Source of the DNA: Anaerolineae bacterium
Lineage (GTDB): Bacteria; Chloroflexota; Anaerolineae; Caldilineales; Caldilineaceae
Assembly: GCA_030432295.1 (NCBI GenBank)
Contig: JAUIHI010000014.1
Span: 62,001 to 126,000, forward strand
DNA: 64,000 nucleotides
Direction of reading: 5' to 3'
Shown: positions 7,001-37,331 of the stretch, one piece after another
Layout of the letters: every line of letters begins with the position of its first letter
How positions within the stretch are numbered: the first letter of the stretch is position 1
Position numbers and translations under genes: made by a program
Notes under the pieces: generated by a model
Database searches by the model: none
Told to the model about the DNA's origin: nothing
What the model saw: only the letters and a program-made list of their open reading frames with translations

Positions 7001-9412
7001 CTATCCCTCCAATACCAACAAAGGGAGCGAAATGATAAAAGTGGTACCCTCGCCGACAACACTAAAACAACGAATGTCACCCCGGTGTCGGCGAAAGATC
7101 AGTCGACAACCGAATAGTCCACCGCCACGGAGCGCGCTCGATCGGTCCTTTGTACTGAAGCCTAAATCAAAGATACGCGAAAGCAGGTCGGGGGGGATGC
7201 CGGGTCCAGTGTCTACAACACTCACTTTGATCTGACGCTCTTCAATTTGATAACTTAGCGCCAATGTTCCCTCTCCCCGCATCGCCTCACACCCATTCTC
7301 AATAACTGACTGGAAGGCATCGCAAAGTATCTCCTGGTTTCCAGATATCCACAGCGCATGTTTCCAAAGCGGCGGTTTAAACTGAATATTCCCGCTAGGC
7401 AACACCAGTTGACAGGCTTGCTCCACCACGCAGCGTAGATCTAATTGCATAAAAGGTATGTGTCCTAGCCCTGTAATTGCTGTTAGTTTTTCGACCAATC
7501 CGAAGATACTGGCAATACGACGCTGAATCCGATCCAATGCAGTTAACCTGTCAGAGGATAGATCGGTGTCATCACGACGGGCAATATCCAGATTATAGGG
7601 AATATCCCCAATCGCGTTCGAAAGTCGGTGGCTAATGACAAAAGCCACTTCTTGCAGTTCCATTATCCGATCCAACTCCCGCTGGTAGGCTGCTTCCTTC
7701 TCTTTTTCTGTTGCTCGAATATGGGTTTCACTGGCCTCGATCAATCCCATCAACGAATCGCTGGCCCCGCCAACTTCCTGGCTATCGGGCTGGGCCAGCC
7801 AGCGCAAAGCTCCGTCCAGTTCCACCGGGTCGAGCAGACCGCCTGCCCGTTCCAGTTCTTCCCAGCGCTGGGCCGTGGACTCCAGCCGTCGCCGGGTCTG
7901 TTCGGCGGTACGGCGTTCGCCGATCCAGCCGCGCAGCAGCGCCCAGCCGCCGATGAGGGCCTCGTGGGCGATGTCCACCCGGCGTGTCGTCTCACCTTCA
8001 CCCCCGCTGGCGGTGAGCAGGCGGCGGTCGATGAGTGTCTGCAATGTGCTGGCAAAGAGGGCTGGGTCGTCGCCTGTCGCGCGCAGGTCGGTTTCGGCCA
8101 CCTGGCGGCGGGTGTCAGCCCGCCCCTCGCCAAACTGGATCAGGCGCAAAAAGATGCGCCGAGCAATCGGCTGGGCGGTCGTGGGCAGATTACTGTAGAC
8201 CACACTGGCCCGGCGGTCGATGGCAATTTGCAGACCGTTGCGCTCGCCCTCGGCCATGCCCGCGTAGGCCGCGGCGGGCAGGTAGCGCCGGGCCACTCCC
8301 TGCCAGAGCAGACGCAGACACTCCTGCACCAGAGGCAACGCCCCCTTTTCCCCCGCGGCGTCGCCGGTTAGCCGCTCCACCAGCAGGGGATCGACACTCA
8401 CCTCCACCTGGGCCGCGGGCTGCACAATCGCCGCGGCCAGTTCGGCCCGTCCCAGGGGTGGCAGGTCGAGCCGATTGGCCCCGATGGCAGGCCAGAGAGT
8501 GCAATCCATCAGTTCCGGGTAGAAGTCAGCGCGCACGGTGAGCAGAATGTGCAGATTGGGCTGGCCGATGAGGGCTTGCAGGGCATCGAGGAAGGGTTGG
8601 ATTTGGGCAGGATCGGATTGGGTGAAGAGTTCCTCGAATTGGTCGATGAAGAGGAGGGTGCGATTTCCCGGTAGAGGCGCGGACTGTAGAGACGCAAAAT
8701 TTTGCGTCTCTACGCCCAGGGCGGTTAGCGGTTTTGCGCCGGGACGCAGGGTGCAGATGTCCCAACCGCCGCTTCCGAATTGGCGGGAACGGCCCAGGGC
8801 GGGGATGACGCCGGCGTAGACGAGGGAGGATTTGCCGCTGCCCGATGGCCCGATGACGCAGAGGAAGGGGTGCAGGCGCAGGCGCTTGACCGCGTCGGCG
8901 ATCTCCCGGTCCCGGCCAAAGAAGAGGCTTTCCTGCTCGGTCGTAAAGGGGGTCATACCGGGATAGGGGCAGTCGGGAACTTCCTGGGCCGGGGCCAGGG
9001 GCGCATCAAGCAGCCGGGCGATCTTTTCCAGCGCGGCGGGCCAGCGTTCCGGTGTGGTGGCGTCCACCTCTACCTGATGTTTGAGGCGCAGGGGCAGTTC
9101 GACGGGTTGCAGAATCAGCGGCACAACCGGCCAGCTTCCCTCCCGGTTGCCGTGAAAGGTCGCGAGCAGATCGACAAATTCGCCGAAGCGGTCGCCTGTC
9201 CAGGCCGGGCTGAGGACGAGGACGACGTAGCGGCTCTGCACGACAGCCCGCTCGTACTCCTTCAGTAGGGGCACACCGGGCCGGAACTCCTCCTGTGTCA
9301 GGACGTTCAACCCGGATGCGCGTAGGGCATCGAGCAGATAGCCGTCCACCCAGGCTTCATCAGCCGGGGCGTAGGAGAGAAAGATGTCGTAGACGGGCGG
9401 TGATTGGGTCAT
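7001..9412 (-). CDS. TIR - STAND NTPase - histidine-kinase fusion protein
   Basis: An 803-residue cytosolic protein. Residues 7-135 form a TIR-like domain (YDIFLSYAPADEAWV; a Glu in GEFVDLL is a candidate NADase residue). The linker CPYPGMTPFTTEQESLFFGR (148-167) is typical of nSTAND1 ATPases. Walker A is GPSGSGKSS (188-196), Walker B LLFIDQFEE (253-261), and a helical STAND module runs to ~540. Residues 560-585 are a charged coiled coil. The C-terminus is a histidine-kinase core: a phospho-acceptor-like FVISHRLSNAIGDI (His595), N-box IENGCEAM (N706), D-box DTGPGIPP (734-741), F-box FDLGFSTK and G-box GGGLFG. STAND proteins usually carry WD40 or TPR repeats here, so the kinase tail is unusual. 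A role in sensing and triggering a cell-death or defence response is inferred. Confidence 0.85.
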   Translation of the reverse strand: MTQSPPVYDIFLSYAPADEAWVDGYLLDALRASGLNVLTQEEFRPGVPLLKEYERAVVQSRYVVLVLSPAWTGDRFGEFVDLLATFHGNREGSWPVVPLILQPVELPLRLKHQVEVDATTPERWPAALEKIARLLDAPLAPAQEVPDCPYPGMTPFTTEQESLFFGRDREIADAVKRLRLHPFLCVIGPSGSGKSSLVYAGVIPALGRSRQFGSGGWDICTLRPGAKPLTALGVETQNFASLQSAPLPGNRTLLFIDQFEELFTQSDPAQIQPFLDALQALIGQPNLHILLTVRADFYPELMDCTLWPAIGANRLDLPPLGRAELAAAIVQPAAQVEVSVDPLLVERLTGDAAGEKGALPLVQECLRLLWQGVARRYLPAAAYAGMAEGERNGLQIAIDRRASVVYSNLPTTAQPIARRIFLRLIQFGEGRADTRRQVAETDLRATGDDPALFASTLQTLIDRRLLTASGGEGETTRRVDIAHEALIGGWALLRGWIGERRTAEQTRRRLESTAQRWEELERAGGLLDPVELDGALRWLAQPDSQEVGGASDSLMGLIEASETHIRATEKEKEAAYQRELDRIMELQEVAFVISHRLSNAIGDIPYNLDIARRDDTDLSSDRLTALDRIQRRIASIFGLVEKLTAITGLGHIPFMQLDLRCVVEQACQLVLPSGNIQFKPPLWKHALWISGNQEILCDAFQSVIENGCEAMRGEGTLALSYQIEERQIKVSVVDTGPGIPPDLLSRIFDLGFSTKDRSSALRGGGLFGCRLIFRRHRGDIRCFSVVGEGTTFIISLPLLVLEG

Positions 9413-13679: not shown

Positions 13680-13829
13680 GCCACTGATGAACACTGATAA
13701 ACGCGGATGGGTACAGACTCGATATAGGGCCAGCGCTGGTCAAAGCTGAGCAGTCATCAAAATCTGCGTCTGCTATCAGAGTTCATCAGTGTGCATCAGT
13801 GGCTCAAATGGCTCTTGCGGTAGAGCCAC
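13680..13829. repeat. Palindromic ~10-bp-phased repeat element abutting the CHAT gene end
   Basis: CACTGATGAACACTGATAAACGCGG on the left is mirrored by TTCATCAGTG/GCATCAGTGG units at 13781-13800. The terminal hairpin GTGGCTC (13799-13805) with GAGCCAC (13823-13829) overlaps the last codons and the stop of the CHAT gene, so the repeat encodes its final residues. Confidence 0.8.
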
Positions 13830-15420
13830 CAAAGCGCTTGCGCAGCCATTCCACCGCTCTCTCACCGGCCCGGCCCACCACACGACCGACCGCAGGTGTG
13901 GCGAAGAGACCAGTCAATACTTCGGCCAGTTCGGGCAGATTGTCCAGCAGCCAGTCGCCGATTTGGGTGATGGTGCTGGCGCTGGGGGTTTCGCTCTCGT
14001 CCACTTTGGAGAGTTCACCCCGCAACAGTTGCAGTTGAAACTGGGCCATCTGGGCCTTCATCCCGTCGATCTGCCCCTGTTTAGCCGCCAGCGCAGCCTC
14101 GACCCCGGCCAACTGTTGACCGATAATCTCTTTGTCGTCGGGGGTCGGCTCGCCCAGCATTTCGTAGACTGTCTGGGTGATATTCTTGCCGACCGCCACA
14201 TTTTTGGACCCCGCGCCCACATTGGCGATGATAAAGTCACCGCCGCCGAAGTCGGAGACATTGATGCCCCCCACGGACGCATTCTGATCCCCAACTTTAT
14301 TCCACCACGGCTCTTGTTTTTTTTCAGCCACAGCCTCACCCTCATTCTCTGTTTGTAGTGAAAAGAGTCGTCCCTCTTCGCAGCGGATGAAAAGCGCGGG
14401 TGTGGCCCACTCCTGATTCCCGGCGGTGGAGAGGGCGATTCTGGCCTGGGCCAGGGCTGCCTCCACGGGGTAGTCCGCGGCCACAGCCTCGTAGAAAGCG
14501 CCTGCCAGCAGCGACGCCGCGCCATCCGAAATTTCCCGCTGCATGGCAATGGCGGCGGGGATGCCCTGCTGCACAAGGGTCTGGGCCACACCGCTGAAGA
14601 CGTCGGCCTGGGAGCCGATGGCCCCTTCACAGGCATTGAGAAAGACCAGGCGCAGGGAGCGGTGGTTGCGCAGGAGCGTTGCCACATCCGACGCCGCCAC
14701 CAGCGACGCGTGGCCGTCGTTGTCAGCGAAGACCATCCCGCCCGTCTCGCTCTGCCCGTCGTAAAGGCCGTGGCCGACAAAATGCAGAATGTGCGCTGGT
14801 TCCTGGAGCAGCCTTCGGCGCAGCCCGTCCAGGGTGGACGATGCCAGCCGCTCCAGCACCAGACCGCCGGACGCCTGCAACGGGGCCAGGGCTTCGCTCA
14901 GCCCAGCCCACTCCTGTTCCACATCCAGCCCCTCCATATCCGCCGGACTGACCAGCACAGCCAGCATCCGCAGGGGCGGCTGCACGTGCAGGACCTCCGG
15001 TTCGGGCAGATTCAGGGCCAGATAGCGCACGAGTTGGGTGCGTTCGTCCAGGGCCAGAAAGAGCCGGGCCCCGGCATCGTAGAGCAGTTCCCAGGGTAGG
15101 GCCGCCAGTTCGGGGGTTCGATTCAGGCGCAGATTGAGGCGCAGGCCGTCGCCGTCGTCGATGCGGGCCATGCTGCTGTGCAGGGCAGTCCCGATGGGTC
15201 CAGAAAAGAGGGCGCCGAAGAGGGCCGCGCCCAGCCAGCGCACCTGTTCGGCGTCCGGGTGGCCGCTCTGCCAACCATCGATGTCCGCCTGGGTCAGGGG
15301 CAAGGCGAAGGCATCCTCGGCCTGACCGACCGGCGAGCGCAGCACTTCCACCCGGTAGCCGCCCCGGTCGTCATAGGCAAAGGAGATGTCAAAAGGGCGG
15401 TAATGACCGGTGAAAGGCAT
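13804..15420 (-). CDS. CHAT-domain caspase-like protease with C-terminal adaptor motif
   Basis: 538 residues from the ATG at 15420, chosen because the protein then begins like its paralogue at 17153 (a beta-rich N-domain, GGYRVEVLRSPVG). The CHAT (caspase HetF-associated with TPRs) fold carries the catalytic pair: His217 in HFVGHGLYD and Cys264 in FLNACEGA. The start of the CHAT core is marked by ELAALPWELLYD. After the protease, residues ~375-415 hold glycine-rich strands ending in VGAGSKNVAVGKNI, shared with the membrane TPR protein encoded next. A predicted coiled coil (~420-475) and a helical tail follow. It is probably a cytosolic cysteine protease activated by a partner. The last residues (GGSTARAI) come from a dispersed repeat. 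Confidence 0.88.
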   Translation of the reverse strand: MPFTGHYRPFDISFAYDDRGGYRVEVLRSPVGQAEDAFALPLTQADIDGWQSGHPDAEQVRWLGAALFGALFSGPIGTALHSSMARIDDGDGLRLNLRLNRTPELAALPWELLYDAGARLFLALDERTQLVRYLALNLPEPEVLHVQPPLRMLAVLVSPADMEGLDVEQEWAGLSEALAPLQASGGLVLERLASSTLDGLRRRLLQEPAHILHFVGHGLYDGQSETGGMVFADNDGHASLVAASDVATLLRNHRSLRLVFLNACEGAIGSQADVFSGVAQTLVQQGIPAAIAMQREISDGAASLLAGAFYEAVAADYPVEAALAQARIALSTAGNQEWATPALFIRCEEGRLFSLQTENEGEAVAEKKQEPWWNKVGDQNASVGGINVSDFGGGDFIIANVGAGSKNVAVGKNITQTVYEMLGEPTPDDKEIIGQQLAGVEAALAAKQGQIDGMKAQMAQFQLQLLRGELSKVDESETPSASTITQIGDWLLDNLPELAEVLTGLFATPAVGRVVGRAGERAVEWLRKRFGGSTARAI

Positions 15421-15657
15421 TGGGCGGTAGTCCCCTGAAATGTGCGGCGAACAGCCGATAGCGGATAGTGACAGCGTAACACACTCCGGGCACGGAGACA
15501 ACCGGTGCAAAAGTGGGCCATTGGCCAAACGAGTGCTTGTACATCAACCCACACCTGGCTGGTGAAAGCGTTCCACCTTCCGCTTTGACGATCCATCGCG
15601 TCCGGGTCTACAATGGGTGGCGGTATCGAACCAATCACTCCACCCAGCGAGAACCCT

Positions 15658-17152: not shown

Positions 17153-19136
17153 ATGCCCAACTACCTGACCTACCTGGACTTTGAGATCGACGTGCGCGCC
17201 GACGACGTGAACGGTGGCTACACTGTCGCCGTTGTCAGTTCGCCCGCGGGGGAAGAACGGGCCGTCGCCTTTCTGCCCTTCGGCGAATTGGAACTGAAGA
17301 ACCGCCTGCTGGAATTGCAAAACGCGCTGCTCCGTTCCGGCGGCGTGCGTCGTCGGGGGCTGACCGTCCACGAACAGACCGTCCAGAACTTTGGCAAAGA
17401 ACTCTTCGACTTTCTGTTGCCCGGCGAAGTGCGCAGCCTCTACCGCACGAGCCGGGGCAAGGCCGTGGCCGGGGGACAAGGACTACGCCTGAAACTGCGC
17501 ATCAGGTCCCGCCGGCCCTGGCCGCCCTGCCCTGGGAATTTCTCTTCGATTCCGCCCACAACGAATATCTCTGCCTCTCCACCCAGACGCCTCTGGTGCG
17601 CTATTTAGAACTGGCCCACCCGCCCCAGATTCTGGCCGTGACCCCACCCCTGCGCATTCTGGGGCTGATCGCCAGCCCGGAGGGACTGGACAGACTGGAC
17701 GTGGAACTGGAGAAGCAGCGGGTGGAGAAGGCACTGGCCGATCTGCTGGCCGACGGGCTGATCGAACTGCACTGGCTGGAGGGCCAGACCCGGCGGGACC
17801 TGCAGCGGGCCATGCGGCGTGGCCCCTGGCACATCTTTCACTACATCGGCCACGGCGGTTTTGACCCCATCCACCAGGAAGGATTGCTCTTTCTGGCCGA
17901 CGCCGCGGGCCAGGCCGAGGCCCTCACCGCCCGTCAGCTCGCTACGATTCTGGGCGATCATTCCTCCCTGCGCACAGTCTTTCTCAACGCCTGTGAGGGA
18001 GCGGCCAGCAGCCAGACCGACCTCTTCTCCGGCACAGCCGCCACACTGATGCGCCGGGGCATCCCCGCGGTGCTGGCTATGCAGTACGCCATCACCGACC
18101 GGGCCGCCATCGAATTCACCACCACCCTCTACGAGAGCCTGGCCGATGGCTACCCGGTGAACGCGGCTGTGACCGAAGCCCGCAAAGCCATCTCCCTGGC
18201 TGTCAACCATTCGGTGGAGTGGGGCACGCCGGTGCTGCATATGCGCGCGCCGGATGGACAGATATTTGAACTGCAAGGCGGAGGGGAAGGCAAAAGGCAA
18301 AACGGAGAAGGCAAAAGTGGTAGTGGCGTTGTGCCGGTTGTGGAGGTGGTTCGAGTACCCGCGGAAGTAGCGACGGTGCGGGCGTCAGTTGTGACGCCCC
18401 CAGCACCCCAATCGCCCATCCAAATCGATTGGGTGACGATCCCCGCCGGGGAATTTTTGATGGGCAGCGACCAGGCCAAGGATTCGATGGCATACGACGA
18501 TGAATTGCCCCAGCACCGGGTCTATCTGCCCGAATACCGCATCAGCCGCACGCCGGTGACAAACAGCCAGTATTTACATTTTGTCGAGGCAAAAGACAAC
18601 CAATACTGGCGCGTTGGAATGACGGCAAGATTCCGAATGGCAAGGAAGATCACCCGGTCGTCACTGTCTCCTGGCACGACGCCCAGGCTTTTTGCAGATG
18701 GGTTGGGGCGCGCTTGCCCACGGAAGCGGAGTGGGAAAAGGCGGCACGGGGCACGGATGGGCGCATTTGGCCCTGGGGCAATGAATTTCCGACCGTTAGC
18801 CACGGCAACTTTGACCGCAATGTTGGCTCGACAACGCCGGTCGAGATGTACCCCGCGGGGGCCAGCCCCTACGGAGTGCTGGATATGGCGGGTAACGTTT
18901 GGGAGTGGACGCAAAGTCTGTGGGGGAAAAATTCCCAGGAACCGGAGTACGGCTATCCCTACCGGTCAGGTGATGGACGTGAGAACCTACAGGCCACCGA
19001 CGACGTTCGTCGTGTGTTGCGTGGGGGGGCGTTCGTCGTCGACCATTCCGACGTGCGTTGCGCCTGTCGGAACAAGCTCTACCCGGACTTCTGGAGAGGG
19101 TACTTCGGGTTTCGTCTCTTTTCCCCCGGCAGTTGA
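17153..19136 (+). pseudogene. CHAT protease-FGE-sulfatase (C-type lectin fold) fusion, split by two frameshifts
   Basis: Read with two one-base corrections it gives ~661 residues. The first frame runs from ATG 17153 to ~17502 (N-domain like that of the CHAT gene at 13804). The CHAT core continues in a second frame (PALAALPWEFLFDS; His in HYIGHGGFD, Cys in FLNACEGA) to ~18618. A third frame completes an FGE/SUMF1 domain (DWVTIPAGEFLMGS...LPTEAEWEKAARG...GNVWEWTQ) to 19136. Restoring one C near 17503 and one A near 18619 recovers family-like sequence at both breaks. FGE domains use a C-type lectin fold for ligand display; CHAT is the protease effector. If the breaks are real the gene is dead; if they are sequencing errors it is an intact sensor-protease fusion. 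The tail resembles a DGR variable region. Confidence 0.8.
19020..19136 (+). other. Candidate DGR variable region at the end of the FGE domain
   Basis: From RGG (19020) to GFR (19107) the scaffold positions match FGE domains while the intervening codons are almost all NNY: TTC GTC GTC GAC CAT TCC GAC, TGC GCC TGT, CTC TAC, GAC TTC, TAC TTC. That is what adenine-directed mutation of AAY codons in a DGR template would give. No template repeat or reverse transcriptase was seen in this window. Confidence 0.5.
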
Positions 19137-19249
19137 TCCTCTGTCCTCTGTTTTTCTCTGGTCTCTGGCAAACGATGGCACTCTGTGCTTTTGCCCGGCT
19201 GCCGCGCAGCCAAGCCGGGCGGGGGTCTGGGGGCGCTGCCCCAGTGCGC

Positions 19250-19275
19250 ATCGCCGTCAGGCGATCTATTTTTTT
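19250..19275 (+). terminator. Intrinsic terminator after the CHAT-FGE gene
   Basis: ATCGCC (19250-19255) and GGCGAT (19260-19265) flank a GTCA loop, followed by CTA and a run of T to 19275. Confidence 0.65.
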
Positions 19276-19301
19276 TAGATAGAACAGCCCCGCTCGTCGG
19301 C

Positions 19302-28316: not shown

Positions 28317-31300
28317 TTACCGCAGCACCAGGGGTAGATAGATCTCCTGGACCGGTGCCAACACCAGATCCAGATCCGTCACCGCCGGGGGCACACCCAC
28401 CACCGGGCTGGTCAGGGGAGCGTAGTCCGGGGCCGTCACCCGCACATACCAGCACCCCTCAGAGACATCCCAGCCGTAGTAGCCGATCTCGTTGGTCTGC
28501 TGCTGGGCGATCTGCGGGGAGATGGGTGCCAGATCCGGGTTGACAATCATGCCCAGTGTGGTGGGGGCTGGCTGGCTCCAGGCCGCGCCCGGGGCCTTGG
28601 ACAGATTGGACTCGCAGGTGTTGGGCCGGGTGTCCGTGGGGCCGGTGCGGGGCAGCCAGCCCGGCACCTTGTAGAGAGTCACTGTGGCCCCCACCACGGG
28701 CTGGCCGCTCTGGGCATCGGTGATGATGCCGCTGGGATCGTAGAGAGTGACCCGGCCCACCGGCGTCTCCTGGGCAACCGCCTCACATTTATACGAGACC
28801 GCAAGGGTGGCCGCCACCACGTCCGCGGCTGGGATGGTGGCCTGATAGAGGTCACTCCCGCTCCCGGTCATGGGATAGTTCGTCCCCGGCGGGGTCATCA
28901 CCAACATCACATCCGTCGGCATTGTGCCGCCTGTGCAGGTGACCGGCAAAGTGATGGCGATGGGCGTTCGTGCGCCTCGCCATTGTGTGATGTTGACCGT
29001 ACCGTCCGGGCTGAAGGTCACGGTGCCGCCGGTCTCCACGCCAACCGTCGGGGGCACGGGCAGACGCAGCACCGCGTCCACGCCCGTGCGCACCTGGCCC
29101 AGGGTAACCGTCACCGGCGTGGACTGCTCCCGAAAGAAGTTGTCGTCGTAATACTGGGAGGCATACTGGCCCGCGGGATCCACAAAGTGGACCCGATAGT
29201 CGATGTCCTGACCCAGGCCACCGAACGCGTACCCCCCATCCGGGCCAGTGAGGGTGCTGGCAACCGCCAGCCATGTCTGCCCCTGCTCCCCCTGCCCCTC
29301 CCCGGCCAGGGGACGGTAGAGGGCGACCTGGATGCCAGGGGCAGCTCCCCCTGTGGCCAGGGTGGCCTGTCCGCTGATCCCGCCAGCGGGTTGACCGCAG
29401 ATCAGCCCGGTGCCCGCATACTCAATCCCGGCCAGCCATGTGGCCACTGGCCCGGTGGCTGGCGCACACCAGCCCGTGTCGTAGAAGGTGAAGGGGCTGG
29501 TGAAGAACCAGTCGCCCACGCCCAGAGCTGGCAGATTGGTGAGGAATTGGGGCACTTCGCCAATCAGAGGGTTGCCGTGCAGGTGCAGATACTGCAACTC
29601 GGCCAGGTTGCCCAGTTCTTGCGGTAGACTGGTGAGTTGATTGCCGTCCACATAGAGTTCCGTCAGCGCTGAGAGAGAACCGATCTGGGTCGGCAGTCCG
29701 GTCAGCAAGTTGTTGGACAGGCCGAACCACCGCACCTTGGAGAGCGCGCCGATGGTGGACGGCAAGTTGGTCAGTTGATTGTTGGCCAGACCCAGACCGG
29801 TCAAGGCCGTCAAATTTCCGATTTCGGATGGAACGCTGGTCAATTGGTTTCTGTCCAAGTTGAGCCAGGTCAGGGCGGTCAGATTGCCAATTTGGGGCGG
29901 CAGACTGGTCAATTGATTGTTGCTCAAGGTGAGCGAGGCCAGGGCCGTGAGGTTGCTGATCTCCGGAGGCAAAGCGCCCGCCAATCGATTTTCGTACAAC
30001 GACAACCAGTTGACCCGACCTCCGCTGCACGAAACCCCATACCACTTACACGGGGTGTTGGTTTGCAACCAGTCTGTCTTGTTGGTCCAGTCCTCCCCGC
30101 CCGTGGCGGTATAGAGGGTCACTAATCCCTGGCACTCGGCTGTGGGGATCTCGGTCACATCCCCACAACTGAATCCAGTTGCGCCCCGGGGCTCCAGATA
30201 GGGATAGCCGTCGTTGCGGGTGCCCGCCACATCTTCTTTCCAGATGTCCTGGAAATCCCACTCCACATAGGTGTCTGCGGCGTGGGGAGAGGTCATCTGG
30301 GCGGTAGTTCGGCCCACTACCCCGTCACCGCCGGCACTGGTAAGCTGGCCGGAGGTCTGGGTATCCCAGTAACAGTCAGACACAGAGGTGCCCGCACCCT
30401 GGCCGATGAAGCCCCCCACGTTGTCGCCGGTTCCGCTCACCGGTCCGGTGCTGTAGGATCGTTCTACCTTCCCGGTCTTGATCTGCCCGATCAATCCGCC
30501 CGCACTCTCCCCGCTGCTGACTGCGGCCCGGCTGTAATTGTCAGATATGATTGGGGTGTTTATGCTCACGTATCCCACCAACCCGCCGACCTGTTGCGTG
30601 CCTTGGACGCTGCCTGCGCTGTAGCTATGGCGGATCTCTCCACCGTTAATCGCACCGAACAGGCCGCCTGTGGCTGCACCACCCTCCACTGTGGCCGTCA
30701 CCGCCACCCTGTGCAGAATGCTGAGGTTCATGGCCCCAGCCAGCCCGCCCACATCCTGCCCCGGCGCGCCGTTGATTGCCCCGGTGACGGTGAGCTTCTC
30801 AATCAGGCTGTCGAACCCAATCACGCCGGCCAGTGTGCCGCTGTGGGAGCGGGTTTGCAGGTTCACATCTTGCAGGTGGAGATTGAACAACTGCGCCTCG
30901 CTGACTGTCCCAAAAAGTCCCTGATGGGACGAGTTGGGGCGATTGATAGCCAAGTTATGAAGGGTATGCCCGCCGCCGTCAAAATTGCCGGTGAAGGGGG
31001 TTGCCGTATCCCCAATCGGCGACCAACCCCGACCATAGTCCCAGACCACCGTGTCGGCCAGATCCACATCTGTGGTGAGCCAATAGCTGGCGTCCAGGTT
31101 CTGGCGCATGGCGTTCAGTTCGTGGATATTGGTGATCAGATAGGGGTCTTGCATGGAGCCGTTGCCCGCTAGATCGGCCAGATCCACGGGCTGGGGCTGG
31201 GCGTATCTGTCCAGATTCTGGAAGACCGGATAGCCACTGCCTGCGTCCATCGCCCACAGGGCAGCGAAGTTGAAACGAGGATAGGTGGCCTGCTGCTGCA

Positions 31301-32318
31301 TCTGGGCGGTAGTTCTTCCCATCACCCCGTCGCCGCCTGAGCTGGTGAGCTGGCCGGAGGTCTGGGTATCCCAGTAACAATCAGACACAGACGTGCCCGC
31401 CCCCTGGCCGATGAAGCCACCCACGTTGTCGCCCGCGCCGCTCACCGGCCCGGCGCTGTAGGATCGCTCGACGATGCCGCCGTACAGATATCCGAACAGA
31501 CCGCCCGCACTCCCCCCGCTGCTGACTGCGGCCCGACTGTAGCTGTCGGATATGATCGATGTGTTGGTGCCGCCCACGTATCCCACCAATCCACCGACCT
31601 GTTGCGTGCCCTGGACGCTGCCCGCGCTGTGGCTATGGCGGATCTCTCCGCCGTTAATCACACCGAACAGGCCGCCTGTGGCTGCGCCTCCCTGCACCGT
31701 GGCCGTCACCGCCACCCTGTGCAGAATGCTGAGGTTCATGGCCCCAGCCAGCCCGCCCACATCCTGCCCTGGTGCGCCGTTGATCGCCCCGGTGACAGTG
31801 ACCTTCTCAATCAGGCTGTCGAACCCAATCACGCCGGCCAATGCGCCACTGTGGGAGCGGGTTCGCAGGTTCACATCTTGCAGGTGGAGATTGAACAACT
31901 GCGCCTCGCTGACTGTCCCAAAAAGCCCCTGATGGGAAGAGTTGGGGCGGTTGATGGTCAAGTTGCGAATGGCATGCCCGCTGCCATCAAAACTGCCCGT
32001 GAAGGGGGTTGCCGTATCTCCAATCGGCGACCACCCCCCGCCCCCATTCCACGGATCGACGCCCAGATCGATGTCCGCCGTCTGCCGAAAATAGGCGTCC
32101 AGGTGATCACGAATACTGTTTAGGTGTGCCGCCGTGGCCACCAGATACGGATCTGCTTCGGTCCCAGATCCACCGGCAAAGGCTTGGGCCGCGTCAACAC
32201 TTAGCGTAGCCTGAGATCCTACGGCTACCAACGTCAAACAGAGAATACCGAGACAGATCAGGAAGGTACGCCCCAGAGACAGGCCAAACCTTCGTCGAGA
32301 AAAACACCAGGATTTCAT
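28317..32318 (-). CDS. Giant secreted GLUG-repeat/LRR protein
   Basis: 1333 residues. A signal peptide (hydrophobic ~15-33) ends near Ala43-Ala46. Two GLUG-type beta-repeat blocks follow (about 47-370 and 385-720), with repeated signatures like VGGLVGYV, TGGLFG, YSAGSVQG and YWDTQTSG. The blocks are the product of a recent ~1-kb internal duplication. Next is a leucine-rich repeat array (~754-933; LTALTWLNLDRNQLTSVPSEIG and kin), then Ig-like/CNA-B-type beta domains (GGISGQATLATGGAAPGIQVALYR; GIITDAQSGQPVVGATVTLYKV). It ends in EIYLPLVLR. GLUG and LRR regions usually mediate adhesion or surface binding. It is probably displayed outside the cell and has no enzymatic motif that I can see. Confidence 0.88.
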   Translation of the reverse strand: MKSWCFSRRRFGLSLGRTFLICLGILCLTLVAVGSQATLSVDAAQAFAGGSGTEADPYLVATAAHLNSIRDHLDAYFRQTADIDLGVDPWNGGGGWSPIGDTATPFTGSFDGSGHAIRNLTINRPNSSHQGLFGTVSEAQLFNLHLQDVNLRTRSHSGALAGVIGFDSLIEKVTVTGAINGAPGQDVGGLAGAMNLSILHRVAVTATVQGGAATGGLFGVINGGEIRHSHSAGSVQGTQQVGGLVGYVGGTNTSIISDSYSRAAVSSGGSAGGLFGYLYGGIVERSYSAGPVSGAGDNVGGFIGQGAGTSVSDCYWDTQTSGQLTSSGGDGVMGRTTAQMQQQATYPRFNFAALWAMDAGSGYPVFQNLDRYAQPQPVDLADLAGNGSMQDPYLITNIHELNAMRQNLDASYWLTTDVDLADTVVWDYGRGWSPIGDTATPFTGNFDGGGHTLHNLAINRPNSSHQGLFGTVSEAQLFNLHLQDVNLQTRSHSGTLAGVIGFDSLIEKLTVTGAINGAPGQDVGGLAGAMNLSILHRVAVTATVEGGAATGGLFGAINGGEIRHSYSAGSVQGTQQVGGLVGYVSINTPIISDNYSRAAVSSGESAGGLIGQIKTGKVERSYSTGPVSGTGDNVGGFIGQGAGTSVSDCYWDTQTSGQLTSAGGDGVVGRTTAQMTSPHAADTYVEWDFQDIWKEDVAGTRNDGYPYLEPRGATGFSCGDVTEIPTAECQGLVTLYTATGGEDWTNKTDWLQTNTPCKWYGVSCSGGRVNWLSLYENRLAGALPPEISNLTALASLTLSNNQLTSLPPQIGNLTALTWLNLDRNQLTSVPSEIGNLTALTGLGLANNQLTNLPSTIGALSKVRWFGLSNNLLTGLPTQIGSLSALTELYVDGNQLTSLPQELGNLAELQYLHLHGNPLIGEVPQFLTNLPALGVGDWFFTSPFTFYDTGWCAPATGPVATWLAGIEYAGTGLICGQPAGGISGQATLATGGAAPGIQVALYRPLAGEGQGEQGQTWLAVASTLTGPDGGYAFGGLGQDIDYRVHFVDPAGQYASQYYDDNFFREQSTPVTVTLGQVRTGVDAVLRLPVPPTVGVETGGTVTFSPDGTVNITQWRGARTPIAITLPVTCTGGTMPTDVMLVMTPPGTNYPMTGSGSDLYQATIPAADVVAATLAVSYKCEAVAQETPVGRVTLYDPSGIITDAQSGQPVVGATVTLYKVPGWLPRTGPTDTRPNTCESNLSKAPGAAWSQPAPTTLGMIVNPDLAPISPQIAQQQTNEIGYYGWDVSEGCWYVRVTAPDYAPLTSPVVGVPPAVTDLDLVLAPVQEIYLPLVLR
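30296..31029. repeat. Internal tandem duplication, copy A
   Basis: Copy A of a ~1.0-kb-period duplication inside the GLUG gene. It matches 31301-32037 with long exact stretches (for example CTGGCCGGAGGTCTGGGTAT and GAACAACTGCGCCTCGCTGA occur in both), offset 1005-1008 bp. Confidence 0.9.
31301..32037. repeat. Internal tandem duplication, copy B
   Basis: Copy B, the N-terminal one in the protein. Differences from copy A are mostly substitutions plus a few codon-length indels that explain the 3-bp change of offset across the unit. Confidence 0.9.
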
Positions 32319-32406
32319 AAGATGCTCTCCTTTGACTTGACTTGCTTGGAATAGAAACCATTGTCCCGACTAGATTTTTGGGATTTCAGGGAGTCCGCCT
32401 ACCCAA

Positions 32407-32439
32407 ACCTTCCAGGAAGCTTGAAGCTTCCTGGAAGGT
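32407..32439. repeat. 16-bp perfect inverted repeat
   Basis: ACCTTCCAGGAAGCTT (32407-32422) and its inverse (32424-32439) meet with one base between. It lies between the two giant secreted-protein genes and may end the upstream one (minus strand, from 37202). Nested GGGATYT copies flank it at 32389 and 32469. Confidence 0.65.
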
Positions 32440-32486
32440 CGAACCACCGGGGTCGTGTCAACCACCTGAGATCCCAAAGATCCTCC

Positions 32487-35400
32487 TTACCTCCGTACCG
32501 CGGGCAGATAGATATTCGCGCCGCTCTCCTTCCCCACAGTGAAGCGCAGGATATAGGGCTGGCTCAGCCCATTCCCCGCCACATCCGCCACATCCGTACC
32601 CACAGTGACCATGTACTCTCCATCCGCCACCACCACCAGGGGACCGAAGACGATCTGGTTGACCGCCCCGTCAAAGCGCACAGTCCCCGTCACCGGAACA
32701 CCCGCACCATCCGTCAAGGTGACCGTGGCCGTGCTGACCGTGGTCTCGCTCAACGCCTCGGAGACGCCGATGACGATCACGGGCGCATAGACCGGGCCAT
32801 CCGTGTCCGTGTAGACGGGACTGGCCGAGGCGATGACGTCCGTGGCGTCCGCGCCGGGACTGGTCCACACCACAACGGGCGGGGTGGCGTCCCCGGCGGA
32901 CGTGACTTCGATGCTTACTTGGGCCGCCCGGCTGGTGGCCGTGCCGTTGTCCACCCGGAAGCTGAAGCTATCCGGGCCGGTGAAGTTTTCCAGCGGCGTG
33001 TAGGTCAGATCAGGCGCGGTGCCGGAGAGGACACCGCCGTGGGGTGGCTCGACCATCTCGAAGGTTAGGGAGAGTTGGCTGACTTCCTGGCCGGCCAGGG
33101 TGATTGGGAGGGGGGTCATGTAGGCTGTGGACAGGCTTTGGGGGATGGCCACCAGGGGCGAGACCAGGTTGACCCAGGTGTTGGTGGGGGTCTCTTCCGG
33201 CACGCTGGGGAAGAAGACGACCGCCTGGTTTTCGACAACCGTGCCGGAGGCCAAGCCGCCGGTCAGGTTGACCGTGTACGTGATGGTCCCCTGAGAATCC
33301 GCCGCGCCCTTTGGCCCCAACTCGCCCACCATCCAGAAGATCTCTCGGCTGTCGGACAGATAGACGCCCGCTCCGTGCAAATCCAGGGTGGCGGCGTCGA
33401 ACACATCGGCCAGTTTGTTGGTGACATAGACCCCGTAGGCCCGGCCCTGGCCCTCGTTTTCATAGGTCACTGTATAGAGCGCCGTGGCCTCCGGCAACAG
33501 ATCCCCCGCGGGACCGTAGATGGCGTTGGGATCTTTGGCAATGAAAAGCCGCAGATCTCGGCAGCGAGGCTTGCCCCCGGCGGCTGTGGCGCTGCAAGAA
33601 TTGGGATCTTCCGGCTCGGGCATGGATGACGTGACGGTCACCGTGCGGGTTTCCGTGCGCTGCACCAGCCCCTTCTCCTCGCAGTCCACACAGCCCGGCC
33701 CGCCGATGCTGGGCACACAGCGCTGGCCATAGGCGATACAGGTCTTGTAGCCGCCGGGCACCCACGCGCCGACTGCGGCGTTGCAGACCTCTTTGTAACA
33801 ACTGTTGGTCAGGCCACCGAAAATGCCGCCGCCAAGCCAACGCACCTGGCCCTCGGTGCAGCAATATTCGCTGGGGTTGGCCCGGCAGTCCAGATCACAG
33901 TCATAGACCTTCTTGACCGTGCTGCCCACCTCCCACACCGCGCCAGCGATGCTGCCGCCGCCGGTGAAGGGGGCCAGGGCCGTCCACGCCACGATGCGCC
34001 CGGCCTTCTTCTTGATGTATTCCCAGCCCACGATGCTCCAGCGGCAGTTGCGCTTGCAGATGTCCACCGTGCAGCCGGTCGTCGCTTCATCCCCCCCGGG
34101 CAGGGAGACGCTGGCCCCGGCCAGATCCGCCTCCCACGCGCCCCACACACTCTTCTCCCCGGTCAGCAGATCCAGGCGCATGCCGCCCGTGCTGTCTTCG
34201 ATGGTGGCCGATCCAGCGTTGACCGTGTAGATCAGCACATGGCCGCCCTGCATGGCCAGGATGCGGGCGATGCGCAGCCCGCTGTTGACCATCACCGCCT
34301 CTAGCACCACTTCGCCTTCAGTTCGGGTGACATTGGCCGCGGTGTGGAAGCTGAACCCGGCGGTGATGGCCGTGTCATAGGCCGATTGCAGCGCCGGGTT
34401 GGCGGCCAGTTGGTCGTTGAACTGGGTCGGCGTCAGCAGATCCACTGTGGACATCTCGCCGGGCACATAGTCCCGATAAAGCTGGGGATCAAACTCGCCC
34501 ACGTTGTAGTTGTCCGCGGTGAGCAGGGTGATGGTGCTGTCCTGGTAGGTTCGGGGCAGGCCCCAGGCAAAGCGCACGGTGAAGGAGAGGAAACCCTGGG
34601 CGCCCGGAGCCAGATCCCCCAGCTTCCAGAAAAGCTGATCCCGTTCCGGCCAGTAAATACCGCCCCCGCTGCTGGCCACATACTCCCCGGACAGGGGCAA
34701 CTGCACCAACAGCACGGCATTCTGCACGGTCTCGGTCAGGGTGTTGAAGTATTGCACCGCATAGTCCGCGGTCTGGCCGGGGCTGACCAGGGTGGGCGCG
34801 CCTGTGGTCACCAACATCTCGCCAGGGGCCGCTGCGCCCGTGTCCGGCGCGCCCAGCCACGGATAGAAGGTGATGTTATCGCCCACGTTGTCGCCCAGGC
34901 CGGACGGATTTTGCGTGGCATGATAGGGGCCAGAGGCGTCCCCCCACCAGTTGTCCCGGGCATCCAGCACCGGCGCGTCCCAGTTGGCGACCGCTTCCCG
35001 GGTCGTGTCGTGGATGCTGTTGTTGCGAAACACCGGGGGCGTGGTGACATAGTTGTTGAAGTCGAATTGGACCCCTGCTTTATCCGAATGGTGGATTTTA
35101 CAGTTCTGAATCGTGGCCGTGGGCGCGCCGCCGGACAGCCCCCAACGGATATCCAAGAGGGCGGACAAGTTATTGGTGAAGGCGGCCCCGCCGTAGGAGA
35201 TTTCGCAGTGATCCAGGCTGATGGTGGAGCGATCCTTTGCCTCGATGCCAGCCCACCAGCCGGTCTCCTGGGTGGCCCCGGTGAAGACGATCGGTTTCTG
35301 CGCCGTGCCCAGGGCATAGAGCCCCCCCTGATCCTTCACAAGCAGATAGGTGGGCGACCCGTAAATATTCTTGTCGAAGGCCAAGGTCGTGCCGGGCTTG

Positions 35401-37202
35401 ATGGAAAGCAGGCCGTTGGACGACACTTCGATGCTGCCCGTCACCCGCACGGGGATGCCCGCGTCGCCCAGATCCCACTGGCGTCCGCCGCCCAGCGCGC
35501 AACCGGGGATCAGCAACTCGTCCCCGCCGTTGCCTGTGGCGGTCAGGTCTTTGGCCGTGATGGAGCCGTTGCACAACCAACTTATGGCTGCGCCCACGTT
35601 GTCGGTCAGGGTCACGTCCGCCAACACGGGGTTGACATTGTGATTGTCAAAGCTGATGCCTCGCCGGCGGTCGTCATTGGTGCCCAGCACGCCATTTTCG
35701 CTGATGGTCATGTTGCCCAAGGTGGGATTGATGGTGCTGTTGGATGTGTAATCGGCCACGCCCGACCATCCATTGCGGCTGATGCTGCCCCCCTCCCAGT
35801 TGACGGAAAGGCTGCTACTGACTCCAGCCTCCAAATAGACGCCATGTTGGCCGTTATCGGTGACATCAATGTTGGTCAATGTGGGCGCAATGGTGGTGCC
35901 GCTATTTGCCCGCACATAAAGCCCGGTGTGCTTGTTGTGGTGGATATGACAATTGCTCACCTCGGCTTGATCCGTGTTGATCTCCAGACCGCCGTCGCCG
36001 AAGTTGCCGTCGCTGGCATAGCTGATATCGCACTGATCCAGGTGCAGGGTGCTGCCCTGTTTGGCCCACAGGCCCATCCAATATTGGCCTGTATCCCCCG
36101 CTGCGGCCAATTGTGAGGTGAAGGTGATGGGTTGGCTGGCCGTGCCCTGAGCTTCCAGCGCCCCCCCATCCGCGATGGCGATGCCAAAGCTGGCGCGGAA
36201 GTCGAGGACCGTGCCCGGCTGCACGGTCAGTGTGCGGCCCGCGGGCACGGTGAGTTGGCAGAGGGTGTAACCGCAGGTGAAGCCATAGTTTGTGCCGCCC
36301 AGGGTCACATCTTCGGTGATGGTCTCCCGGAAGTTGCCGATGGTCACCTCGTTGCGGGCATTGCCGGAAAAGGTGAGGTCGGCATAGGTGGGCTGCATGT
36401 TGATGGTGGATTGATAGATGGCATACTGATACCGATAGTCATCGCTCGGGTTGGTCTGATCCGCCACCCGCACCTGTTGCAGCACGGGCGTCAACCCTTC
36501 CCCCTCCAAATAGATGCCGTTGTTGGCCCCAGAGATCACCTCGCTGTGGGTCAGGGTGAGTTGGGCGTCGGTCACGTCTACGTGCGCCCGGCTCCAGCCG
36601 TGCAGGGCGCTGTTGAAGGCATACGACGCCCCGCCATAGCGGATGGAGACATGGTCCAGGGTGGCCACGCTATCTGGGGCCAGGAACAGGCCATACCATT
36701 CGCCGGGCGTGCCCACGCTGGGGCCGTCGCCGTTGGTATCGCCCCCGGCGCTGTCGTCGGCCATGCTGGTGAATATAACCGGCTGGTCTGCCGTGCCGGT
36801 TGCGATCAGGCCGCCGTCCACCCGCAGGCCGCAGCCGTTGTCATAGCCGCACTTGCCGCCAAACTTGATCGTCACCCCGCTTTCCAGAGTCAACGTCACC
36901 CCCGCGGGGACCATCACCGAGCAGTTGCTGGCCGTGTAGACCCCGGACGCCCAGGTGGTGTCGGCGGTGATGGGATCGCAGGCGGAGGCTGCGGGCGTGT
37001 CGGTTGTGGCAGACTTCCCAGGCAGGGAGGAAGCAGAGACGGTGAAAGCGGAGAAAGCAAGCAGAAGAACGAGGGGCAACAGAGGGAGAATTGGACGAAA
37101 GGACGCACAGAAACGGCGAACGGATGGCGGATCCCCGCGGCTGGCGTGGGTTGGAAGGCGGGTCGATCCGAGAAAAGCAGTAGCCCGTGGGGTGGGGTTC
37201 AT
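32487..37202 (-). CDS. Giant secreted parallel beta-helix protein with DUF11 and Ig-like domains
   Basis: 1571 residues; AAAGGAG precedes the ATG at 37202. The signal sequence is hydrophobic at ~37-57 (PLLPLVLLLAFSAFTVSA). Residues ~70-770 are right-handed parallel beta-helix repeats (for example VSNCHIHHNKHTGLYVRANS and LDHCEISYGGAAF). Around 790-930 and 1215-1330 lie two DUF11-like beta domains (LVSPGQTADYAVQYFN; LLPEATALYTVTYENEGQGRAYGVYVTN). Between them, ~1065-1205, is a Cys-rich insert with ~18 cysteines (CTVDICKRNCRW, EYCCTEG, GCVDCEEKG), probably disulfide-bonded. The end has cadherin-like and Ig-like beta domains, then NIYLPAVRR. It is an extracellular protein, perhaps binding or cleaving polysaccharide; no catalytic residues are evident. 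Confidence 0.87.
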   Translation of the reverse strand: MNPTPRATAFLGSTRLPTHASRGDPPSVRRFCASFRPILPLLPLVLLLAFSAFTVSASSLPGKSATTDTPAASACDPITADTTWASGVYTASNCSVMVPAGVTLTLESGVTIKFGGKCGYDNGCGLRVDGGLIATGTADQPVIFTSMADDSAGGDTNGDGPSVGTPGEWYGLFLAPDSVATLDHVSIRYGGASYAFNSALHGWSRAHVDVTDAQLTLTHSEVISGANNGIYLEGEGLTPVLQQVRVADQTNPSDDYRYQYAIYQSTINMQPTYADLTFSGNARNEVTIGNFRETITEDVTLGGTNYGFTCGYTLCQLTVPAGRTLTVQPGTVLDFRASFGIAIADGGALEAQGTASQPITFTSQLAAAGDTGQYWMGLWAKQGSTLHLDQCDISYASDGNFGDGGLEINTDQAEVSNCHIHHNKHTGLYVRANSGTTIAPTLTNIDVTDNGQHGVYLEAGVSSSLSVNWEGGSISRNGWSGVADYTSNSTINPTLGNMTISENGVLGTNDDRRRGISFDNHNVNPVLADVTLTDNVGAAISWLCNGSITAKDLTATGNGGDELLIPGCALGGGRQWDLGDAGIPVRVTGSIEVSSNGLLSIKPGTTLAFDKNIYGSPTYLLVKDQGGLYALGTAQKPIVFTGATQETGWWAGIEAKDRSTISLDHCEISYGGAAFTNNLSALLDIRWGLSGGAPTATIQNCKIHHSDKAGVQFDFNNYVTTPPVFRNNSIHDTTREAVANWDAPVLDARDNWWGDASGPYHATQNPSGLGDNVGDNITFYPWLGAPDTGAAAPGEMLVTTGAPTLVSPGQTADYAVQYFNTLTETVQNAVLLVQLPLSGEYVASSGGGIYWPERDQLFWKLGDLAPGAQGFLSFTVRFAWGLPRTYQDSTITLLTADNYNVGEFDPQLYRDYVPGEMSTVDLLTPTQFNDQLAANPALQSAYDTAITAGFSFHTAANVTRTEGEVVLEAVMVNSGLRIARILAMQGGHVLIYTVNAGSATIEDSTGGMRLDLLTGEKSVWGAWEADLAGASVSLPGGDEATTGCTVDICKRNCRWSIVGWEYIKKKAGRIVAWTALAPFTGGGSIAGAVWEVGSTVKKVYDCDLDCRANPSEYCCTEGQVRWLGGGIFGGLTNSCYKEVCNAAVGAWVPGGYKTCIAYGQRCVPSIGGPGCVDCEEKGLVQRTETRTVTVTSSMPEPEDPNSCSATAAGGKPRCRDLRLFIAKDPNAIYGPAGDLLPEATALYTVTYENEGQGRAYGVYVTNKLADVFDAATLDLHGAGVYLSDSREIFWMVGELGPKGAADSQGTITYTVNLTGGLASGTVVENQAVVFFPSVPEETPTNTWVNLVSPLVAIPQSLSTAYMTPLPITLAGQEVSQLSLTFEMVEPPHGGVLSGTAPDLTYTPLENFTGPDSFSFRVDNGTATSRAAQVSIEVTSAGDATPPVVVWTSPGADATDVIASASPVYTDTDGPVYAPVIVIGVSEALSETTVSTATVTLTDGAGVPVTGTVRFDGAVNQIVFGPLVVVADGEYMVTVGTDVADVAGNGLSQPYILRFTVGKESGANIYLPAVRR

Positions 37203-37331
37203 GGCGCAGGCTCCTTTGCCGGGTATAGGAAGTGTGTATGGGGTGCGTCACCGATTCTGACGCGTTGCGTCACACTATACTATACGCCAGGTGGGGAGGG
37301 CGCGGATCGGCCAGTTGGGTAGGTCACACGC

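What the first reader, a model, noticed from the sequence alone, without database searches (positions are those of the whole stretch)
19020..19136. DGR-like variable region on the FGE (C-type lectin) domain of a CHAT protease
FGE-sulfatase domains with a C-type lectin fold are known targets of diversity-generating retroelements, which copy a template repeat into the target with mutations at adenines. Between the fixed RGG (19020) and GFR (19107) the residues facing the binding surface are V V D H S D, C, L Y, D F and Y F, and nearly all these codons end in C or T, as expected if AAC/AAT template codons had their first two bases changed. Coupling such a sensor to a caspase-like protease fits the hypervariable sensor-effector modules described in multicellular bacteria. 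No reverse transcriptase or template is in this window, so the DGR would act from elsewhere. An ordinary FGE C-terminus under relaxed constraint is the main alternative.
Basis: partly seen in the sequence, partly recalled or inferred. Interest (0 to 1): 0.85.

Follow-up and report, generated by a model that had tools for sequence, protein, structure and literature searches.

The report
Relic hypervariable tip of bacterial sensor
The end of this broken bacterial gene carries the clear fingerprint of a mutation machine that rewrites sensor proteins, shown by a matching template in a sister species, although the machine itself is not found in this genome.

Summary
19020-19115 (RGG..GFR) is a genuine DGR-type variable region (VR). 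Same-genus genomes, however, carry DGRs with FGE targets. Against the template repeat (TR) in G006:C40, the window VR differs at 21 of 30 template adenines but only 6 of 66 other bases. Verified TR/VR pairs show 0-3 non-A differences and dispersed targets in G004 show 3-4. The syntenic CHAT-FGE ortholog in G006 shows 25. The window also has the TR-shared 5' boundary, a VR-type homing end, and a 3' module of CTCTG array plus GC hairpins. That module follows proven DGR targets in this genus and is absent from the TR and from the frozen ortholog. A second orphan VR lies in the same genome (NACHT-FGE, G000:C37).

The CHAT-FGE gene itself carries two frameshifts. Best reading: a relic or orphan DGR target, probably no longer active. 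This is a new member of a known kind. The CTCTG array is an apparently undescribed, testable candidate targeting element.

The parts
17153..17608 (+). N-terminal part of the CHAT-FGE gene, first reading frame (ATG 17153 to stop 17608)
   Evidence: Aligns to G006:C50 ortholog (82% DNA identity 17153-17510), frame lost near 17505
17504..17512 (+). First frameshift: +2 nt relative to the intact ortholog
   Evidence: Alignment with the ortholog
17596..18593 (+). CHAT (caspase-like) domain and start of the FGE domain, second frame; His codon 17851, Cys codon 17992
   Evidence: Pfam CHAT 1.2e-24 and FGE-sulfatase 3e-11; residues located
18586..18600 (+). Second frameshift: -1 nt relative to the ortholog, at a short A run
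   Evidence: Alignment with the ortholog; an assembly error is possible here
18594..19136 (+). C-terminal FGE (C-type-lectin-like) domain, third frame
   Evidence: Pfam FGE-sulfatase 5.1e-28 for 18714-19136; PDB relatives FGE and Treponema DGR variable protein 2y3c
19008..19027 (+). 5' end of the VR tract, CGTCGTGTGTTGCGTGGGGG, shared with the template repeat of G006:C40 while the sequence upstream is not
   Evidence: Alignment of window, G004:C34, G006:C40 VR and TR
19020..19115 (+). DGR-type variable region (RGGAFVVDHSDVRCACRNKLYPDFWRGYFGFR)
   Evidence: 21/30 template A changed, 6/66 non-A changed versus G006:C40 TR
19107..19136 (+). VR-type homing end (IMH-like) GGGTTTCGTCTCTTTTCCCCCGGCAGTTGA, including the stop codon
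   Evidence: Nearly identical in G004 and G006 targets; the TR has CCCACGGC where VRs have CCCCCGGC
19139..19185 (+). CTCTG array: five copies at 19139, 19146, 19156, 19163, 19181
   Evidence: Present after DGR VRs in the genus, not after the TR
19193..19220 (+). GC-rich hairpin GCCCGGCTGCCGCGCAGCCAAGCCGGGC
   Evidence: Conserved in G004:C34 and G006:C40 targets
19227..19244 (+). GC hairpin CTGGGGGCGCTGCCCCAG
   Evidence: Same element in G004 and G005 targets, similar in G001
19250..19277 (+). Hairpin ATCGCCGTCAGGCGAT followed by a T run; terminator-like
   Evidence: Conserved after DGR targets G004, G005, G006a

Best explanation
19008-19136 is a genuine DGR variable region on the C-terminal FGE (C-type-lectin-like) sensor domain of a CHAT caspase-like protein, with its 3' target module at 19137-19277. 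In this lineage or in the donor of the domain, a DGR reverse transcriptase copied a template very like the one in sister genome G006:C40 (shown by comparison), randomised its adenines, and the cDNA replaced the VR (inferred from the known DGR mechanism). In the genome at hand no reverse transcriptase and no template are found, and the gene has two frameshifts. The VR is therefore most likely an orphan or relic: past diversification left frozen in a decaying gene. The inferred former role is a variable binding surface that triggers the CHAT protease in a conflict or suicide-type defence.
For: Template comparison: 21/30 A changed versus 6/66 non-A; 70% of adenines changed is close to the 75% expected from full randomisation. 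Two of the six non-A differences (GGG and TTC) are shared with G004 targets. In the ranking of FGE C-termini the window groups with proven DGR VRs and the syntenic ortholog does not (6 versus 25 non-A differences). Perfect A-only TR/VR pairs in G005, G006 (two), G054, and near-perfect in G001 and G009, beside RTs carrying the GNLTSQ and YVDD motifs. VR-only 3' module in window and relatives, missing in the frozen ortholog. Absence of RT and TR; the same RT search finds RTs in 26 of 61 genomes including 4 of 6 other genus members. Frameshifts; the 64-kb window is otherwise tiled by long intact frames. CHAT-CLec DGR targets and degenerate DGR loci are described in Thiohalocapsa (PMC10907252).
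Against: The template used is from another species; the true template is unknown, and four differences (GCG, CAT, AAG, AGA) are not explained by it plus G004-type changes. The assembly has 61 contigs, so a DGR could lie in a gap. One frameshift is at a short A run and could be a sequencing error. No read-level data were available.
Confidence: 0.75

Rival explanations
1. The VR is a live remote target: an RT and template exist in the organism but fell into assembly gaps or sit on an unbinned replicon, and still diversify this gene in trans.
For: Remote or trans VRs are documented (PMC7517822, PMC10907252); G004 (95% complete) also has four VRs of this template type with no matching template found in its assembly; two VRs of different template types are present in the own genome.
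Against: 100% estimated completeness, no RT of any kind, no template for either VR, and two frameshifts in the gene.
Confidence: 0.17
2. The FGE domain with its VR and 3' module was imported by recombination from a DGR-bearing relative, so this lineage need never have owned the DGR. This is a variant of the relic reading, not its opposite.
For: CHAT part is 89% identical to the syntenic G006:C50 gene but the FGE core only 67% and the 3' module 47%; against G004:C34 the values are 68%, 72% and 83%.
Against: A second orphan VR of another template type elsewhere in the genome suggests that DGRs once acted here; the swap may equally have happened in G006.
Confidence: 0.3
3. Ordinary FGE C-terminus under relaxed constraint, with C/T-ending codons by codon usage.
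For: NNY codons are common (background 0.47 in this gene); the NNY count alone is only P of about 0.01.
Against: 6/66 versus 21/30 mismatch split against a foreign template; the syntenic ortholog and conserved FGE families give about 20-32 non-A differences; conserved 5' boundary, homing end and 3' module.
Confidence: 0.03

Closest known systems
DGRs of multicellular bacteria diversifying CLec/FGE sensors of conflict systems (Thiohalocapsa PB-PSB1; Dore et al. 2024, PMC10907252)
   Same: Adenine-specific template-to-VR changes in an FGE/CLec domain; CHAT effector in a DGR target (their DGR 2); degenerate loci lacking RT or template
   Different: Here no RT or template in the assembly; the target gene is frameshifted; the 3' CTCTG array and hairpin set was not mentioned in the passages of that paper I searched
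Same-genus DGR G006:C40 (L155): NACHT / FGE target, RT, template
   Same: Template differs from the window VR at only 6 of 66 non-adenine bases; same VR boundaries and similar 3' module
   Different: Complete DGR with an FGE target of other N-terminal architecture; not in the window genome
Bordetella phage BPP-1 DGR target site (Guo et al. 2011, PMC3240598)
   Same: VR is followed by hairpin-forming repeats beyond the end of TR/VR homology
   Different: BPP-1-type hairpins have 7-10 bp stems, 4-nt GRNA loops and lie 4-34 bp after the VR; here several hairpins lie about 80-150 bp after GFR, with other loops, preceded by a CTCTG array
CHAT-FGE ortholog at the same locus in G006:C50 (L167)
   Same: Same downstream neighbours (aldolase, membrane protein, GlnRS), CHAT 89% identical, same homing-end sequence
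   Different: Intact frame, non-NNY C-terminus, 25 non-A differences to the template, no hairpin module

Membership tests
DGR variable region (target) | Differences from a template concentrated at template adenines | tested here: met
   Against a sister-genome template: 21/30 A versus 6/66 non-A, ranked with controls. The template is from another species.
DGR variable region (target) | VR near the 3' end of a gene, on a C-type-lectin/FGE fold | tested here: met
   FGE-sulfatase 5.1e-28; VR ends 21 bases before the stop codon end
DGR variable region (target) | Homing end (IMH) shared with the template with slight differences | tested here: met
   VR ..TCCCCCGGC versus TR ..TCCCACGGC
DGR variable region (target) | BPP-1-type hairpin after the VR (7-10 bp stem, GRNA loop, 4-34 bp away) | tested here: not met
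   Several hairpins, but other loops and longer distance; proven DGR targets of the genus also deviate, and this feature is described for phage DGRs
Complete DGR in this genome | Reverse transcriptase of DGR type | tested here: not met
   No RVT_1 hit and no hit to a same-genus DGR RT in the own genome
Complete DGR in this genome | Template repeat | tested here: not met
   No near-repeat and no A-only source sequence
Complete DGR in this genome | Accessory protein (Avd or HRDC) | not tested
   Not searched; moot without RT
CHAT peptidase | CHAT domain with His-Cys dyad | tested here: met
   PF12770 1.2e-24; YIGHGG and LNACEG motifs at 17851 and 17992; activity not testable
Active, expressed CHAT-FGE sensor | One open frame joining CHAT and FGE | tested here: not met
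   Two frameshifts
Ongoing DGR diversification | Within-population VR polymorphism | not testable with these tools
   No reads held

The most novel reading that the evidence does not exclude
Targets of Chloroflexota FGE-type DGRs carry, beyond the end of TR/VR homology, a CTCTG-repeat array followed by GC hairpins that acts as an address for retrohoming. It would let one DGR serve many dispersed sensor genes, and losing it (as in G006:C50) would freeze a sensor.
Probability: 0.35. Interest if true: 0.7.

Novelty: new member of a known kind. Interest (0 to 1): 0.5.

Why it matters
It shows that a DGR footprint can be demonstrated in a genome without any DGR by borrowing the template of a sister species. 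It records how such sensors end: one copy of this locus is frozen and intact without the 3' module, the other is frameshifted with a DGR-like VR. The shared CTCTG-plus-hairpin module gives a concrete, testable candidate for how these retroelements recognise dispersed targets.

Tried and rejected
- A near-repeat by DNA search and by an adenine-only degenerate pattern found only the VR itself.
- NNY codon count alone was judged too weak as evidence.
- A bare CTCTG pattern is not specific: a different, common CTCTGCGCCTCTGCG repeat is scattered in these genomes, so the array was scored only in the 160 nt after GFR.
- The CTCTG array is not required for NNY signatures: many 9/9 NNY FGE loci lack it.
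- FGE paralogs L001 and L004 of the own genome do not fit the 32-residue VR; L003 does.
- Structure prediction was not run because the target is not one open frame; surface exposure of the VR residues is inferred from FGE and TvpA homology only.

Full report
Observation. The stretch is as described: RGG at 19020 and GFR at 19107, in the frame that ends at 19136. The domain is FGE-sulfatase (5.1e-28) and the upstream domain is CHAT (1.2e-24). The three pieces of the gene lie in three frames. Alignment with an intact ortholog places a +2 change near 17505 and a -1 change near 18590. The rest of the window is tiled by long intact frames, so a real pseudogene is more likely than a generally poor assembly, although the second shift is at a short A run.

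Own genome. The window is G000:C3:62001-126000 of a 6.72-Mb, 61-contig assembly rated 100% complete. It has no RVT_1 match, no match to a same-genus DGR reverse transcriptase, no near-repeat of the VR, no near-repeat of a sister template other than the VR itself, and no place from which the VR core (19026-19085) could arise by changing adenines only, with up to 3 further mismatches allowed. The search is able to find such RTs: it does so in 26 of 61 genomes, including G001, G004, G005 and G006 of the same genus.

Sister genomes. Beside FGE genes, G005, G006 (twice) and G054 have perfect adenine-only TR/VR pairs (0 non-A mismatches, 11-17 A changes), and G009 and G001 nearly perfect ones with 1 and 3. 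The RTs examined have the DGR-type GNLTSQ motif and YVDD, and three of them match the phage RT family phrog_1423 at about 1e-109 or better. FGE proteins with DGR-type VRs in the genus include NACHT-FGE, trypsin-FGE and CHAT-FGE architectures.

Key test. The TR of G006:C40 and the window VR have the same length without gaps. Of 30 template adenines 21 differ; of 66 other bases 6 differ. Because adenines sit in exposed codons, the Fisher p (2.5e-9) overstates the case; the ranking is the proper control. In it, DGR targets with their own or a sister template have 0-5 non-A differences, the window 6, the syntenic CHAT-FGE ortholog G006:C50 25, and most conserved FGE families 20-32. Eleven of twelve AAC template codons read directly against the window keep the third base C; the exception is AGA at 19095-19097. 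Two of the six differences are shared with the dispersed G004 targets.

Boundaries and 3' module. Sequence common to window, G004:C34, G006:C40 VR and TR begins at 19008 and ends in the homing end, where VRs read CCCCCGGC and the TR CCCACGGC. After the stop, window and relatives share a CTCTG array and GC hairpins ending in a T run; the TR does not have it. Among 59 FGE loci of relatives and of the own genome, all 20 with an array have at least 8/9 NNY codons, against 26 of 39 without (Fisher p = 0.002), and array loci (22, counting distant ones) have more hairpins (mean 2.5 versus 0.7; p = 3e-7). These loci are related to each other, so the p values are not independent evidence. By chance 27 of 6384 overlapping 160-nt stretches of the window carry such an array, and some of those are this one. 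The module differs from the BPP-1 hairpin (PMC3240598) in loop and distance. A full-text search for CTCTG with the DGR term found no relevant paper, within the limits of that library.

Second orphan. The NACHT-FGE gene on G000:C37 has 9/9 NNY codons, an array with hairpins, best template G006:C216 (15/28 A versus 11/68 non-A), and no source sequence in the genome.

Domain swap. Against G006:C50 the CHAT part is 89% identical, the FGE core 67%, the 3' module 47%; against G004:C34 the values are 68%, 72% and 83%. The simplest reading is that the sensor part of this locus was exchanged in one of the two lineages.

Mechanism. Shown: adenine-confined divergence from a sister template, conserved VR boundaries, conserved VR-side module, absence of RT and TR from the assembly, frameshifts. 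Inferred: past mutagenic retrohoming, loss of the DGR (or import of the VR with the domain), and the former role as a variable sensor driving a CHAT protease. Trans-acting and degenerate DGR loci and CHAT-bearing DGR targets are known (PMC10907252), as are remote targets in cyanobacteria (PMC7517822). The finding is therefore a new, probably dead member of a known kind, with one new lead, the CTCTG module.

Noticed in passing
G000:C37:8122-8290 (L003 from 2071): Second orphan DGR-type VR in the same genome, on a NACHT-FGE protein, with CTCTG array and hairpins; no template found.
   Followed up: yes
window 19139-19277; L014, L153-L158, L200, L220, L222, L224: CTCTG array plus GC hairpins plus T run after the stop of DGR targets in this genus, absent from the TR; possible retrohoming address, also contains a terminator-like hairpin.
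   Followed up: partly
L167 (G006:C50) 7381-9400 versus window 17153-19136: FGE domain of the syntenic CHAT-FGE gene is far more divergent than its CHAT domain: sensor-domain exchange at a fixed locus.
   Followed up: partly
G004:C34, C253, C43, C89: Four dispersed VRs of one template type in G004 with no such template found in its assembly.
   Followed up: partly
window 13804-15528: A second, intact CHAT protein (574 aa, minus strand) stands about 1.6 kb upstream of the frameshifted CHAT-FGE gene.
   Followed up: no
window 28320-37232: Two large neighbouring genes with leucine-rich repeats, GLUG/M26 N-terminal repeats, beta-helix and Ig-like domains: probable surface proteins.
   Followed up: no
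L153, L154, L162, L069 shortly after the VR: A short TAGGGCCGAC-like sequence recurs between the VR module and the RT or template; possibly part of the template RNA.
   Followed up: no
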